Assembly (NCBI GenBank): GCA_019187105.1
Contig: JABAQM010000001.1
Span: 1,550,001 to 1,614,000 of the forward strand
Origin: Fimbriimonadaceae bacterium
GTDB taxonomy: Bacteria; Armatimonadota; Fimbriimonadia; Fimbriimonadales; Fimbriimonadaceae
Length of the DNA stretch: 64,000 nt
Direction of reading: 5' to 3'
The notes beneath the pieces were generated by a model. It had not been told where the DNA came from, did not search any database, and saw only the letters and a list, made by a program, of their open reading frames with translations. This document shows, in pieces, positions 17,515 through 22,775 of this stretch. Position 1 is the first letter of the stretch; the number at the start of each line of letters is the position of its first letter. The position numbers and the translations under genes are program-made.

Positions 17515-18906
17515 GTGTTGACCGCAATCTCCCTTGTCCTCACGACGATTCCATTCACGAACATCACAGCAGAGTTAAAGATCCAGCTCGCCAACGACGC
17601 CGCCTGCTGGGTAGATGTGGACGCGGACGGCTGGACCGACCTGGTGTGCGGCGGGGTGGTTTGGCGCAGCGAGCAGGGTAAGTCCTTCGAACGCCTCACT
17701 GAAGGTTTGGGCTCGGTTGTCGCGGCGGACTACGATAACGACGGATATCCAGACCTCTTCTCTTACTCACGGCAGAAGCTGTATCGCAATCTGAAGGGCA
17801 AGAAGTTTGAAGCGGTACAGCTGCCGGACCTTCCCGCCACGGTCTCGCGAGGCGCCTGCTGGGCCGACCTCGATGCCGATGCCTTTGTCGACCTCTTCGT
17901 CGGCGGGTTCGAAGACTGGGAGCGGCAAATCACCTACCCAAGCTTCATCCTCAAGAACCAATCGGGAAAAAGCTTTCAGTTGGTTTGGCAAGAGTCTAAA
18001 TACCGAACGAGGGGGGTAACCGCATGCGACTTCGATCGGGACGGGCTTGCCGAAGTCTATGTCTCCAACTACCGGCTGCAGCCAAACCAGCTATGGAATC
18101 GCAGCAAGGCGGGAGTCATGCGGGATCTCGCCCCCGATCGCAACGCCGTCGCCACATCGGAAGGCTTTTCTGGCGGCCATTCGATCGGGGCGGCTTGGGG
18201 CGACTTTGATGGCGACGGTGAGATCGATCTTTTTGCCGGAAACTTCGCCCACGTTGACGATCGGGGCGACCAGCCGAAGTCGCGTTTCCTGCACAACAAG
18301 GGCGCCAAGGGCGGCTGCCGTTTCGATGACAAGGGCACCTGTGGGGTCTGGTACCAGGAGTCCTATGCCTCTCCGGCTGCCGGCGACGCTGACAACGACG
18401 GCGACCTGGACCTGTTCTTTACGACCGTCTACGGGACGGCCTCATTCAACCGGCCCAACTACCCGGTGCTGTTCCAGAACGAAGGCGCATTCAAGTTCAC
18501 CGACGCGACCGAAGGGAGTGGCCTCGAAAAGCTTCCGCCGACCTACCAAGCCGCCTTCGCCGATCTTCGCAACGATGGCCGGCTGTGCCTGGCCACGGCC
18601 GGTTCGCTCTTCGCCTCCAAGTCTCCGGCGAAGCATTGGCTCGGCGTGCGTCTGGAAGGCGATGGCAAGAAAGTGAACCGCAGCGCGATCGGTGCGCAAG
18701 TACGAATCAAAGTGGGAAGCAGAGTTGTGACTCGCCAGGTCGAGGCCGGAACCGGGGAAGGCAATCAGAATGACCTTCGCCTGCACGTTGGGCTGGGTGA
18801 CAATGTAGGGCCGGTGGATCTGGACATCCTGTGGCCCGGCGGATTCCGACAGACCGTCAAATCGGTCCGATCGAACCGAATTGTTACCGTCAAGTTTCGG
18901 CGCTAA
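17515..18906 (+). CDS. FG-GAP/VCBS repeat protein with ASPIC/UnbV C-terminal domain
   Basis: A 463-residue secreted protein: short hydrophobic leader (MLTAISLVLTTIPF), then FG-GAP/VCBS beta-propeller blades with calcium-binding loops (DVDADGWTDLV, DYDNDGYPDLF, DLDADAFVDLF, DFDGDGEIDLF, DADNDGDLDLF). The C-terminal ASPIC/UnbV domain (NDLRLHVGLGDN, VDLDILWPGGFRQTV) is the family's signature pair. Such proteins are extracellular and common in soil Acidobacteria, Planctomycetes and Armatimonadota; their exact role is unknown. It is divergent from the cytochrome peroxidase gene, and a TAACCT box sits 6 nt before the start. Confidence 0.9.
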   Translation: MLTAISLVLTTIPFTNITAELKIQLANDAACWVDVDADGWTDLVCGGVVWRSEQGKSFERLTEGLGSVVAADYDNDGYPDLFSYSRQKLYRNLKGKKFEAVQLPDLPATVSRGACWADLDADAFVDLFVGGFEDWERQITYPSFILKNQSGKSFQLVWQESKYRTRGVTACDFDRDGLAEVYVSNYRLQPNQLWNRSKAGVMRDLAPDRNAVATSEGFSGGHSIGAAWGDFDGDGEIDLFAGNFAHVDDRGDQPKSRFLHNKGAKGGCRFDDKGTCGVWYQESYASPAAGDADNDGDLDLFFTTVYGTASFNRPNYPVLFQNEGAFKFTDATEGSGLEKLPPTYQAAFADLRNDGRLCLATAGSLFASKSPAKHWLGVRLEGDGKKVNRSAIGAQVRIKVGSRVVTRQVEAGTGEGNQNDLRLHVGLGDNVGPVDLDILWPGGFRQTVKSVRSNRIVTVKFRR

Positions 18907-18972: not shown

Positions 18973-19471
18973 TTAAGGAATTAGGACGGTGTCGATCACG
19001 TGGATGACCCCGTTGCCGCACAGAATGTCGGTTTTGATGACTTTCGAGTGGTTCACGGTGACGCCCTTCTTGTTCTCGATCTTCACCGACTTTCCGCCAA
19101 GTGTCTTGATGGACGAGCCGTTCTTGAGGCTCACGACATCGGCAGCGACGAACTTGCCGGGAACGACGTGGTACGTCAGGATCGCCTTGAGCTTCTCCTT
19201 GTTCTCCGGCTTAAGTAGGGTGGGCAAGGGTGCCCGGCTTCTTCTTTTCTAGCTTCTCGAAGGCCGCATTGGTCGGCGCAAACACCGTGAAAGGACCATC
19301 GCCTTTGAGGGCATCGACCAGCCCAGCGGCCTTAACCGCGGCCACGAGAGTAGAAAAGTCCTTGGCTCCGGCGGCTGTATCGACGATGTCCTTCTGAGAG
19401 GATGTGCCGGCGAAGGACAAGGAAGCGGTCACGGCGACGATGAATAACGGAATGAACATTTTCAGTTTCAT
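18973..19471 (-). pseudogene. Secreted FAS1 (fasciclin) domain protein, frameshifted
   Basis: Two overlapping frames together make one FAS1 protein of about 165 residues. The first (19211-19471) has a signal peptide ([22 protein letters not shown]), then [20 protein letters not shown] and the FAS1 H1 block [16 protein letters not shown]. The second (from 19227 down to 18973) continues with [20 protein letters not shown] and the H2 region [13 protein letters not shown]. Deleting one base from the run at 19222-19224 restores [12 protein letters not shown] exactly as in homologous proteins. FAS1 domains mediate adhesion at the cell surface. It lies downstream of DUF378 and probably shares its repeat-bearing promoter. 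A sequencing error is as likely as a real mutation. Confidence 0.85.
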
Positions 19472-19480
19472 AGCAATCTC

Positions 19481-19702
19481 CTAGCGACTGGCCACCACGA
19501 CGCCGTGGCTCGAATCCGGCATGGTCAATCGAATGGCTTGGTAAAGAGCGGCTGCACCGACGAGGATGTAGATAAGGCTCGCGAGGGGGCTGCCCGCTCC
19601 AAACAGTGCGGCGACCAGATCGAACTGCGCCGCGCCCACCATTCCCCAGTTGAGCCCGCCCACAATCAGCAGCACAAGGGTAACGACGTTTAGGGTTTTC
19701 AT
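19481..19702 (-). CDS. DUF378 family small membrane protein
   Basis: A 73-residue protein with two transmembrane helices. The N-terminal helix contains the DUF378 signature VLLIVGGLNWGMVGAAQFDLV, and a short loop (FGAGSPLASLIYILVG) leads into the second. The C-terminal tail is short and polar. The start at 19702 has GGAGAG 5 nt upstream; a longer frame to 19753 would run through the promoter. It is first in a two-gene unit with the FAS1 gene 9 bp downstream, driven by the near-consensus promoter at 19742-19770. Function unknown. Confidence 0.88.
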   Translation of the reverse strand: MKTLNVVTLVLLIVGGLNWGMVGAAQFDLVAALFGAGSPLASLIYILVGAAALYQAIRLTMPDSSHGVVVASR

Positions 19703-19741
19703 GATCTCTCCTGTCCGCCGCCACTCGGCCCGGACACATTC

Positions 19742-19770
19742 ATTGTACGACACTGTCTAGAGTTTGTCAA
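19742..19770 (-). promoter_or_regulatory. Near-consensus sigma-70 promoter for DUF378-FAS1
   Basis: Read on the minus strand: TTGACA (plus 19765-19770), a 17-nt spacer, then TACAAT (plus 19742-19747). The -35 box is itself one unit of the YTNGACA repeat array, and two further units fall in the spacer and -10 region. A bound repressor would therefore block polymerase directly. Confidence 0.85.
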
Positions 19771-19782
19771 GTATATGTCGAG
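19744..19782 (-). promoter_or_regulatory. Four direct repeats, candidate operator of the MerR/B12 regulator
   Basis: Minus-strand 7-mers CTCGACA (19776-19782), CTTGACA (19765-19771), CTAGACA (19754-19760) and TCGTACA (19744-19750), spaced 11, 11 and 10 bp. Head-to-tail 11-bp spacing matches how the DNA-binding domains of a CarH tetramer are known to line up on DNA. The link to the adjacent regulator is inferred. Confidence 0.7.
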
Positions 19783-19820
19783 AATTTTCAAGATCTTTCC
19801 TCCGCAGTTCCTCATCGATA

Positions 19821-19838
19821 TTCGACAGAACTTAGACA
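19821..19838 (+). promoter_or_regulatory. Two direct repeats, candidate autoregulatory operator
   Basis: Plus-strand TTCGACA (19821-19827) and TTAGACA (19832-19838), 11 bp apart. They match the consensus of the opposite array but point toward the regulator gene. Confidence 0.6.
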
Positions 19839-19849
19839 TGCAGTACTAT
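19821..19849 (+). promoter_or_regulatory. Promoter of the MerR/B12 regulator gene, leaderless type
   Basis: TTCGAC (19821-19826), 17-nt spacer, TACTAT (19844-19849). The expected transcription start falls at about 19856, which is the GTG start codon. Confidence 0.6.
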
Positions 19850-19855
19850 TAGGTC

Positions 19856-20743
19856 GTGCAGTTCCCGATTCGTAACGTGTCGCAGATCACGGGATTGAGC
19901 TCCCACACGATTCGGGCTTGGGAGCGCCGATACAGCGCCGTGACCCCGGAGCGATCCGGCACGAATCGGCGGCTCTACCGCCAAGGAGAGGTTGAGCGCC
20001 TCAAGCTGCTCCACCGTGCGGTTTCAGCGGGCTTCAGTATTGGCAGCGTCGCCAAGCTCTCAGACCAAGCACTCCAAGAGTTGCTTGGCGGCCCTGCAAT
20101 CGACGACACGTCCGAAGGCAGTCTCCTCGAACAGTGCCGAGGTGCCGTGCGCGACCTCGACGGCAAGGCGCTTGAGTCCGTACTCGTCATGGTATCGACG
20201 AAGTCCGGGATGCGAGCGGCGTTGCACGATCTCATCCTGCCCCTGCTGGATTGGATCGACACGGAATGGGCGCGAGGAAAGCTAACGATCAGCCAAGAAC
20301 ACCTTGCATCGGCGGTGATTCGAACCTTCCTGGAGAAAGTGCGGAGCGGCCTTCCAGTATCCACAATCGCCCCGCGAATCGTTGTCACAACGCCGGCAAA
20401 CCAGATTCACGAGATCGGTGCTCTGTTGGTTGGCATCACTGCATCCATGGCATCGTGGCAGGTCATCTACCTCGGACCAAACCTACCCGCGAGCGAGATT
20501 GTCGATGCCTCCCATAGGTCCGGAGCAGCTGCCGTAGCGCTCAGCCTGGTGTTTCCGACCGACGACGAACGCATTGGTGAGGAGTTGCGCACGATCCGCA
20601 AGGGCCTCAAACCGTCCGTGATTCTGTTCGTGGGTGGCCGGGCCGCGCCACACTACCAGCGGGAGCTGGCCGAAGTGAACGCGATCCTCGTTCCAAGTCT
20701 CGCGGCCCTTGAGGATCGTCTGGCCGGGCTTCGACCCAACTAA
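19856..20743 (+). CDS. MerR-type regulator with B12-binding domain (CarH/LitR-like)
   Basis: A 295-residue regulator. Residues 1-70 are a MerR winged helix (FPIRNVSQITGLSSHTIRAWERRY, NRRLYRQGEVERLKLL). A helical bundle follows, then a B12-binding Rossmann domain. The helix bundle carries the W-x9-EH motif of CarH-type photoreceptors (Trp138, Glu148, His149). The lower-ligand loop is QIHEIG with His185; the usual first Asp of DxHxxG is Gln183. The residue after Trp138 is Ala, so the His that forms the light-induced adduct in Thermus CarH is not at that place. CarH binds adenosylcobalamin in the dark, represses as a tetramer, and dissociates in light. The start is GTG and appears leaderless. 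Repeats in its own promoter suggest autoregulation. Confidence 0.9.
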   Translation: MQFPIRNVSQITGLSSHTIRAWERRYSAVTPERSGTNRRLYRQGEVERLKLLHRAVSAGFSIGSVAKLSDQALQELLGGPAIDDTSEGSLLEQCRGAVRDLDGKALESVLVMVSTKSGMRAALHDLILPLLDWIDTEWARGKLTISQEHLASAVIRTFLEKVRSGLPVSTIAPRIVVTTPANQIHEIGALLVGITASMASWQVIYLGPNLPASEIVDASHRSGAAAVALSLVFPTDDERIGEELRTIRKGLKPSVILFVGGRAAPHYQRELAEVNAILVPSLAALEDRLAGLRPN

Positions 20744-20771: not shown

Positions 20772-22775
20772 CTAGCGTGGCTTCGGCTTGACCTGTGGGA
20801 ACGAGCTGATGCGCAGTCTTGCCGCCCCCATCGGGATCAGCTTCAACTTTTGTCGCGGACGGTCGGTTGCGACCGGGCTCTTTGGCAAGATCGCGCAGAG
20901 GCCGTTTTCGTCGATTCCCCAGCTCGGGATTTGCCGTCCTTCGGCTTCCAACTCGATCGGCACGTCTGCCAACGTGAAGGGATAGTTTGACTTTGGCCAG
21001 GGCTTTGCAGAGACTTTGAACTTCGTTCCCGAAACCAGGCCAAAGTTCCAGTCGGACTTGGGAAGGATCTCAAAGGTCGGCCAGGGTTGCTGATCGACGC
21101 CAGGCTGCCAGGACGAGTCGTGCTGCGCGGTCTTCAGGCCGTCCACTCGGCGATACTCTTCTTCGATCCTCAAGCTGAAGGTCAGCGGCCCGCAATCCAC
21201 GCTGACCGCATCCTTCATTTGGTCCCAAACGCGCACCCGAGGCTCGAACGGTAGGGAGATTTCCACACGGTCGCCTTTGGACCACTCCCGCTCGATCCGA
21301 AGGTACTTGCCGGGCTCGCACCGCTCCGCTTTGCCCGCAACCTTGATGCTCGCTCCCTTTGCCCACAACGGAACGAGGACGTAGAGGGGGAATCTCACGG
21401 GACTCGCCGTCCCGACTTCCATCACCACGGCGCCATCGAAAGGATAGTGGGTGGTGGTGGTGATCGTGACTTCCTTGCCGTCGGCCACCTTGGCCGTAAC
21501 GGTGCCTTCGCAGAAGGTAAGGGCAGCAAGGCCGTTGTCTTGGGTTGCCATCCAAGTGCTCTCGAGGAAGTTGACCCACCCGCTCGTATGGTTGTGCTGG
21601 CAGCACCTGCTGCTGAACGGATTCATCAGAAGATACGGCCCCGGGTTGTCGATGCCGGGGTGGTGATTGGCGGCATCGCTGACCACCATGTTTGGCGCGG
21701 TCAGATAACGCAGCGCCCGCTGATCGGGCATGAAAGCTGCCGGCATGGAGTTGAAAGCAACATCCTCGGTATTTGCCACCCACAGCGGGTCGCCGGTAAT
21801 CGCGGTCATCACCTGGTTCGAGAGAATCTGCTCGACGAACGCGCAGGTTTCCGTCGCCTGGTGGGGGTCGTCGTGCCCGGGACGCGCATTCTCGTCCGCT
21901 CCGAACATCCCGCCCGGCACCTCGCCATACTTCTCCCGGATGAACTCGAAGTTGCGGTAGCTTGCCCGCAGGTCAGCCTCGTTCCCGCTTTGCTGGAAGT
22001 AGGTGGCCGGCGCCCGGAAGCATTCGGCGATGTTCACCACATGGAAATTGGGCAAGCGACCGAGCTGGCGCCAGTTTGCGGTGTTGCGGTCGATCTTGGT
22101 TGCCAGTTCCAGGAGAAACGCATCGCCGGTGCGGTTGTAGAGCCAATACACGCTCGCAAGGTTGTCGCCCCCGCGGCTGTTCTCCCAATAGTCCTGCAAG
22201 AACGCCTCGTCGGGAATCGTCAGCTGCCACCGAAAGTAGTTCGTCATCAGCTCGATGACCCGCTTGTCTCCGGAATGCTCGTGCCAAGCCTGCAGGATTT
22301 GGAGCATGAGCATCTGGGCCCAGAGGTCGCGATTGCCCTTCCCTTTGAGAACGATCGGGCCAAAGTCACCGTTCGGTCGTACACTCTTGAAAGCGCCCTC
22401 AACCCAAAGCTTCGTCTCCTCGATCATCGCAGGATCATTCAGAACGAAGCCAATCCGGCAATAGCCTCGCAGCCAATAAGGAACCTCCTCCCAACCGTAT
22501 TTGCCCTTACCTTCCGGGTTTAGCCAGGCATTGTCCTGCTTGATCAGCCAGATGGAAATCTTGCCGAGTTCCCCGGCAAGGCCCTTTCGTTGCCGATCCA
22601 GCATCTCCAAGAGCCAGCCTGCGGGCCGGAACGCCGTGATCGGCAGTTTCATCAGCGGAACCGGTCGGAGCGGCTCGCGATTGGGAAAATAAAAAGCATT
22701 CTTGCCGGCAGTCGGCGGTCGGTCGACGATCGAAGCGGGCGCGGAAAGGGCGGTCATGAGTAGGGCAGCGAGCAT
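20772..22775 (-). CDS. Glycoside hydrolase family 127-like (DUF1680) beta-L-arabinofuranosidase
   Basis: A 667-residue secreted enzyme (leader MLAALLMTALSAPAS). The (alpha/alpha)6 barrel shows the DUF1680/GH127 pattern: YWLRGYCRIGFVL, SRGGDNLASVYWLYN, the catalytic-region block HQATETCAF (Glu plus Cys), and the Cys pair in SSRCCQHNHTSGW that binds zinc and supplies the nucleophile in GH127. A beta-sandwich follows (PLYVLVPLWAKG, VSVDCGPLTFSL). The family removes beta-L-arabinofuranose from plant glycans, but GH127/146 members vary. It sits 34 bp after the GH76-like gene on the same strand, so the two likely work together on polysaccharide. Confidence 0.85.
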   Translation of the reverse strand: MLAALLMTALSAPASIVDRPPTAGKNAFYFPNREPLRPVPLMKLPITAFRPAGWLLEMLDRQRKGLAGELGKISIWLIKQDNAWLNPEGKGKYGWEEVPYWLRGYCRIGFVLNDPAMIEETKLWVEGAFKSVRPNGDFGPIVLKGKGNRDLWAQMLMLQILQAWHEHSGDKRVIELMTNYFRWQLTIPDEAFLQDYWENSRGGDNLASVYWLYNRTGDAFLLELATKIDRNTANWRQLGRLPNFHVVNIAECFRAPATYFQQSGNEADLRASYRNFEFIREKYGEVPGGMFGADENARPGHDDPHQATETCAFVEQILSNQVMTAITGDPLWVANTEDVAFNSMPAAFMPDQRALRYLTAPNMVVSDAANHHPGIDNPGPYLLMNPFSSRCCQHNHTSGWVNFLESTWMATQDNGLAALTFCEGTVTAKVADGKEVTITTTTHYPFDGAVVMEVGTASPVRFPLYVLVPLWAKGASIKVAGKAERCEPGKYLRIEREWSKGDRVEISLPFEPRVRVWDQMKDAVSVDCGPLTFSLRIEEEYRRVDGLKTAQHDSSWQPGVDQQPWPTFEILPKSDWNFGLVSGTKFKVSAKPWPKSNYPFTLADVPIELEAEGRQIPSWGIDENGLCAILPKSPVATDRPRQKLKLIPMGAARLRISSFPQVKPKPR

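What the first reader, a model, noticed from the sequence alone, without database searches (positions are those of the whole stretch)
19742..19855. Two helically phased YTNGACA arrays between a CarH-like B12 regulator and DUF378-FAS1
Seen: on the minus strand CTCGACA, CTTGACA, CTAGACA and TCGTACA start 11, 11 and 10 bp apart (plus-strand 19782 to 19744). On the plus strand TTCGACA and TTAGACA are 11 bp apart (19821-19838). The minus array includes the -35 box of a TTGACA-17-TACAAT promoter, and the plus array includes the -35 box of the regulator's own promoter. Known: CarH tetramers bind DNA with domains head to tail, about 11 bp each, over the -35 region, and release in light. Inference: this is a complete light/B12 operator system with an unusual target, and both promoters are controlled by the same protein.
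Basis: partly seen in the sequence, partly recalled or inferred. Interest (0 to 1): 0.88.

Follow-up and report, generated by a model that had tools for sequence, protein, structure and literature searches.

The report
CarH-type operator pair controlling fasciclin genes
A vitamin-B12-binding, probably light-responsive repressor sits back to back with genes for a small membrane protein and a fasciclin adhesion-type protein, and both promoters carry its textbook 11-bp binding repeats; the same arrangement recurs in many bacteria, which points to an undescribed light- or B12-controlled surface-protein switch.

Summary
The arrays are real. On the minus strand three perfect TnGACA repeats lie 11 bp apart (19781-19754), with the -35 box in the middle one. 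On the plus strand two perfect repeats (19822-19838) carry the regulator's own -35. The triple repeat occurs once in the 3.3-Mb genome. The layout equals that of the Thermus thermophilus carH promoter and the published CarH consensus nnnnTnnACAn. Orthologous regulators in other Fimbriimonadia keep the arrays: 73 pairs at 11 bp upstream of 91 regulator genes, against about 0.02 in control windows. The unusual target is also conserved: DUF378 and/or FAS1 is divergent from the regulator in 15 of 17 Armatimonadota loci and 19 of 74 other loci. Other relatives sit by photolyase, carotenoid, TspO, DUF1365 or CFA-synthase genes, the usual light regulon. The AdoCbl-pocket residues W131, E141, H142 and H177 are kept. 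His132, which drives tetramer break-up in Thermus CarH, is Ala here and non-His in 86 of 91 relatives, so light release must differ in detail and is unproven. The window's FAS1 gene is broken by a frame change. Verdict: new variant of a known kind.

The parts
19856..20743 (+). CarH-like regulator (MerR HTH + B12-binding_2 + B12-binding), GTG start, 295 aa
   Evidence: Pfam calls over cut-off; best PDB match T. thermophilus CarH by sequence and by fold of the AlphaFold2 model
19754..19781 (-). operator of the DUF378-FAS1 promoter: three 11-bp direct repeats TCGACA (19781-19776), TTGACA (19770-19765), TAGACA (19759-19754)
   Evidence: conserved in 14 of 15 Armatimonadota loci with a divergent DUF378/FAS1 gene
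   Evidence: 11/12 match
19822..19838 (+). operator of the regulator's own promoter: two 11-bp direct repeats TCGACA and TAGACA
   Evidence: exact in 13 and with one mismatch in 3 more of 17 Armatimonadota loci
19822..19849 (+). regulator promoter: -35 TCGACA (first repeat), 16 nt, -10 TACTAT; GTG start 6 nt after the -10, so probably a leaderless mRNA
   Evidence: same geometry in T. thermophilus carH
19481..19708 (-). DUF378 small membrane protein (75 aa), first gene of the divergent operon
   Evidence: Pfam PF04070, 2.1e-20
18973..19471 (-). FAS1 (fasciclin) secreted protein gene, split by a frame change around 19211-19227 into two overlapping half ORFs
   Evidence: both halves match PF02469, positions 2-47 and 48-123; intact in relatives; frames shown

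Best explanation
This is a divergent, self-regulating CarH-type switch. In the dark, AdoCbl-loaded regulator oligomerises and its DNA-binding domains sit head to tail on the 11-bp repeats. They cover the -35 box and spacer of the DUF378-FAS1 promoter (three repeats) and of the regulator's own, probably leaderless, promoter (two repeats), so both are repressed. Loss of the adenosyl ligand by light, or lack of AdoCbl, releases the protein and turns on a small membrane protein and a secreted fasciclin (adhesion or aggregation type) protein as part of a light or photo-oxidative response. Shown here: the repeats, their overlap with both promoters, their conservation, the linked target, the AdoCbl-pocket residues. 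Inferred: binding by this protein, AdoCbl dependence, repression, light release, and the adhesion role of the target.
For: The array layout is identical to T. thermophilus carH, TGTACA-N5-TTGACA-N5-TATACA with -35 in the middle repeat, and fits the published consensus nnnnTnnACAn (PMC9304148). Arrays lie beside the regulator in 13 of 16 regulator-bearing class genomes; only 11 of the 97 class genomes without it have any match. Spacing of 11: 30 observed against 0.01 in shuffles (Armatimonadota) and 43 against 0.035 (other loci); 73 against 0.015 in control windows from the same loci. FAS1 and/or DUF378 divergent in 15 of 17 Armatimonadota loci and 19 of 74 others. E141, H142 and H177 in 91 of 91, W131 in 90 of 91. 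Model matches CarH. An ATP:cob(I)alamin adenosyltransferase gene is present. Relatives sit by photolyase, crtI, lycopene cyclase, TspO, DUF1365, CFA synthase. FAS1 genes are light or photo-oxidative stress genes elsewhere: R. sphaeroides RSP_1409, A. brasilense, M. kansasii.
Against: His132 is replaced by Ala; Thermus H132A stays largely tetrameric in light. Two Gly of the published photoreceptor signature (GxxW, GxxH) are Asp and Asn here. The regulator's -35 is TCGACA rather than TTGACA. The FAS1 gene of this genome is frame-broken. No array precedes this genome's photolyase gene. No binding or expression data exist.
Confidence: 0.8

Rival explanations
1. AdoCbl-dependent repressor that senses B12 status (or oxygen/redox through the cobalamin), not light: the pocket is kept but the light-driven ligand switch is lost with His132.
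For: His132 is Ala in the window and non-His in 86 of 91 relatives; Thermus H132A forms dark tetramers but mostly does not dissociate in light.
Against: CtMerR with Arg at this position is photolysed and monomerises. Close relatives lacking His132 stand beside photolyase, carotenoid, TspO and CFA-synthase genes. No cobalamin riboswitch over the gathering score in the genome, and no B12 gene next to the locus.
Confidence: 0.2
2. CarA-like, B12-independent regulator: the operator is used, but the B12 domain is vestigial and another signal controls release.
For: M. xanthus CarA uses the same operator without B12 (PMC9304148).
Against: W131, E141, H142 and the cobalt ligand H177 are all kept in the window and are near-invariant over 91 relatives; an adenosyltransferase gene is present.
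Confidence: 0.08
3. The repeats are a chance product of strong TTGACA-type promoters and have no operator function.
For: Each array contains a -35 box, and the repeat core resembles TTGACA.
Against: Exact 11-bp spacing conserved in phase over 17 loci and beyond, 30 against 0.01 expected; extra repeats lie outside the -35; absent from control windows in the same loci.
Confidence: 0.02

Closest known systems
CarH/LitR of Thermus thermophilus and its carH operator
   Same: Domain order, AdoCbl pocket (W131, E141, H142, H177), three 11-bp TnnACA repeats with the -35 in the middle one, start codon about 6 nt after the -10
   Different: About 30% identity; His132 replaced by Ala; target is DUF378-FAS1 instead of phytoene synthase and photolyase; separate operators at two divergent promoters
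CtMerR of Chloracidobacterium thermophilum
   Same: MerR plus cobalamin domain without His132; shows that a light-monomerising tetramer is possible without it (PMC11796333)
   Different: More distant in sequence; its operator and targets were not described in the passages I read
Myxobacterial CarH/CarA operators (PMC9304148)
   Same: Tandem 11-bp DR/dr repeats over -35 regions; some control two divergent promoters
   Different: Targets are carotenoid genes
RpoE-ChrR control of fasciclin genes (Rhodobacter sphaeroides RSP_1409, PMC7074977; Azospirillum brasilense, cited in PMC10949492)
   Same: A FAS1 gene under photo-oxidative stress control
   Different: Sigma factor and anti-sigma factor instead of a B12 repressor

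Membership tests
CarH/LitR B12-based regulators | N-terminal MerR HTH plus helical B12-binding_2 and Rossmann B12-binding domains | tested here: met
   Pfam, all over cut-off; fold search top hits 5c8d, 5c8e, 5c8f
CarH/LitR B12-based regulators | AdoCbl-pocket residues W131, E141, H142 (Wx9EH) and cobalt ligand H177 | tested here: met
   Window W138, E148, H149, H185, invariant in A1; alignment with TtCarH
CarH/LitR B12-based regulators | His132 upper ligand of the light state in Thermus CarH | tested here: not met
   Ala in window; His in 5 of 91 relatives. Not universal even among proven photoreceptors: CtMerR has Arg
SignatureFinder light-responsive cobalamin signature | GxxW, EH, GxxH, GxxxP | tested here: not met
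   EH and GxxxP kept; the others read DxxW and NxxH in the window. Most relatives keep both Gly
CarH operator | Tandem 11-bp repeats nnnnTnnACAn overlapping -35 or -10 | tested here: met
   literature consensus
CarH/LitR B12-based regulators | AdoCbl-dependent tetramer that binds DNA and is released by light | not testable with these tools
   Needs purified protein
CarH carotenogenic or photoprotective regulon | Linked carotenoid, photolyase or related genes | tested here: inconclusive
   None beside the window locus; photolyase exists elsewhere in the genome without an array; present beside many relatives
FAS1 and DUF378 families | Pfam match of the divergent genes | tested here: met
   PF04070 and both halves of PF02469; DUF378 and FAS1 also confirmed in other-phyla loci

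The most novel reading that the evidence does not exclude
A widespread, undescribed branch of CarH-type B12 regulators lacking the upper-ligand histidine controls a surface module (DUF378 plus fasciclin) through paired 11-bp-repeat operators, acting as a light- or B12-gated adhesion or aggregation switch in Armatimonadota and about ten other bacterial groups.
Probability: 0.5. Interest if true: 0.7.

Novelty: new variant of a known kind. Interest (0 to 1): 0.57.

Why it matters
Known CarH/LitR targets are carotenoid and repair genes. A conserved link to fasciclin and DUF378 gives two poorly understood gene families a testable signal (light or B12) and a likely role in photo-oxidative stress or aggregation. 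It also shows that most of this branch lacks the histidine thought to drive CarH photoswitching, which makes it a good test of how B12 photoreceptors work without bis-His ligation. The operator rule (TnGACA every 11 bp over a -35) can be used to map such regulons in uncultured phyla.

Tried and rejected
The first genome-contig scan with the single protein found nothing; the scan with alignment A1 worked. The upstream listing read minus-strand loci on the wrong strand; it was redone on oriented sequence and only one search is used for counts. The fourth minus repeat TCGTACA was rejected (10 bp, no T of TnnACA, it is the -10). The only other exact pair in the genome (G000:C1:287755) lies in a histidine-kinase reading frame and was rejected as chance. 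Arrays near this genome's photolyase, adenosyltransferase and weak cobalamin-riboswitch loci were looked for: none except one TnnACA pair (TTAACA, TTAACA) near the adenosyltransferase, taken as chance. Literature searches for CarH or LitR with fasciclin, and for DUF378, found no described link in the open-access library. A tree shows the FAS1/DUF378 link scattered (18 changes over 34 tips) outside the Armatimonadota cluster, so it is not one simple inheritance.

Full report
The observation. The intergenic stretch between 19709 and 19855 carries two sets of 11-bp direct repeats. The minus set is TCGACA, TTGACA, TAGACA, starting at 19781, 19770 and 19759. The plus set is TCGACA and TAGACA, starting at 19822 and 19833. 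The three-repeat array is found once in the 3.3-Mb genome (the reversed control pattern also once). The stricter two-repeat pattern is found four times, three of them here and one inside a histidine-kinase frame. Both arrays overlap consensus promoters: TTGACA-17-TACAAT on the minus strand and TCGACA-16-TACTAT on the plus strand.

The regulator. The 295-aa protein at 19856-20743 has a MerR HTH, a helical B12-binding_2 and a Rossmann B12-binding domain. It is closest in the PDB to Thermus thermophilus CarH by sequence and by fold (mean pLDDT 89.6). W131, E141, H142 and H177 of CarH are conserved, and the residue at 132 is Ala. Over 91 related regulators E141, H142 and H177 are invariant and W131 is present in 90, but 132 is His in only 5. 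In Thermus CarH the H132A variant mostly stays tetrameric in light (PMC10442372). CtMerR, which has Arg there, still monomerises in light (PMC11796333). So the AdoCbl pocket is supported, and light release is plausible but undecided. The genome has a cobalamin adenosyltransferase gene.

Comparison with known operators. The published CarH repeat is nnnnTnnACAn, three or four copies over -35 or -10 (PMC9304148). In T. thermophilus the stretch upstream of carH reads TGTACA-N5-TTGACA-N5-TATACA, the only such array in the 6.8-kb locus read, with the -35 in the middle repeat and the start codon right after the -10. The window's minus array has the same layout, and the plus array has two of the three repeats.

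Conservation. Orthologues (42-49% identity) occur in 16 of 113 genomes of the class, the window's own included. Searching the same 113 genomes for the triple TnGACA pattern with at most one mismatch gives hits right beside the regulator in 13 of the 16. Of the 97 genomes without the regulator 11 have any match, several of them simple repeats. Every one of the regulator-linked array loci also carries FAS1 or DUF378. Upstream of 17 Armatimonadota regulators there are 30 TnGACA pairs at spacing 11, against 0.01 in dinucleotide shuffles; upstream of 74 regulators from other loci 43 against 0.035. Random windows from the same loci give 0.015 per draw against 73 observed. The plus array, over the regulator's own -35, is exact in 13 and one mismatch off in 3 more of 17 loci. 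The minus array is present in 14 of the 15 loci that have a divergent DUF378 or FAS1 gene. Of the two loci without them, G083a has no minus array, and G073 has only a degenerate pair in front of a divergent gene that clusters with TspO.

The target. DUF378 and/or FAS1 is divergent from the regulator in 15 of 17 Armatimonadota loci and in 19 of 74 loci from other groups. By record titles these include Thermodesulfobacteriota, Latescibacterota, Verrucomicrobia, KSB1, Zixibacteriota, Acidobacteriota, Actinomycetota, Bacteroidetes and Ignavibacteria relatives. Most are binned metagenomes, so single assignments may be wrong. The 80 loci are the best matches of a capped scan, so the fraction is not a census. 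In other members of the branch the neighbours are photolyase, phytoene desaturase, lycopene cyclase, a NUDIX protein that looks like IPP isomerase, TspO, DUF1365, amine oxidase and cyclopropane-fatty-acid synthase, several of which also stand next to FAS1. Fasciclin genes are induced by photo-oxidative stress or light under other regulators: RSP_1409 in R. sphaeroides (PMC7074977), A. brasilense as cited in PMC10949492, and M. kansasii (PMC9861118). I found no report linking CarH or LitR to fasciclin or DUF378 in the library held.

Mechanism proposed. AdoCbl-bound oligomer covers both -35 regions in the dark and represses DUF378-FAS1 and itself; loss of the adenosyl group or of AdoCbl frees both promoters. 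Three repeats at the target against two at the regulator suggest tighter control of the target (inference). The start codon of the regulator lies 6 nt after the -10, so its mRNA is probably leaderless, as the same geometry in most relatives and in Thermus suggests.

Caveats. The FAS1 gene in this window is split by a frame change that relatives do not have; whether this is a sequencing error or real decay is unknown. The window regulator misses two Gly of the published photoreceptor signature. There is no binding or expression evidence.

Noticed in passing
window 18973-19471 (-): FAS1 gene broken by a frame change near 19211-19227; both halves match the fasciclin profile and relatives have one intact frame.
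   Followed up: partly
window 19844-19858: Regulator start codon 6 nt downstream of its -10: probable leaderless mRNA, same geometry in most relatives and in Thermus carH.
   Followed up: partly
L104:4674-5183 (-) and L095:11-517 (-): Two families (about 170 aa each) without Pfam match recur beside the regulator in several Armatimonadota loci.
   Followed up: no
G020, contigs C18, C20, C23, C25, C50, C63: Many 11-bp tandem repeats of TCGACAAYYGT type in a genome without a full-length orthologue of the regulator; look like a dispersed simple repeat.
   Followed up: no
L164, L166, L135, L120: DUF4397 secreted proteins also occur beside this regulator in several loci, in some together with DUF378 or FAS1.
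   Followed up: no
L153, L132, L123, L139 and others: A sigma-70 family gene lies beside the regulator in about eleven loci, mostly Verrucomicrobia and Dadabacteria.
   Followed up: no
window 20772-22775 (-) and 17515-18906 (+): Flanking genes are a GH127 beta-L-arabinofuranosidase and an FG-GAP/ASPIC protein; no match to them in the related Armatimonadota loci.
   Followed up: yes
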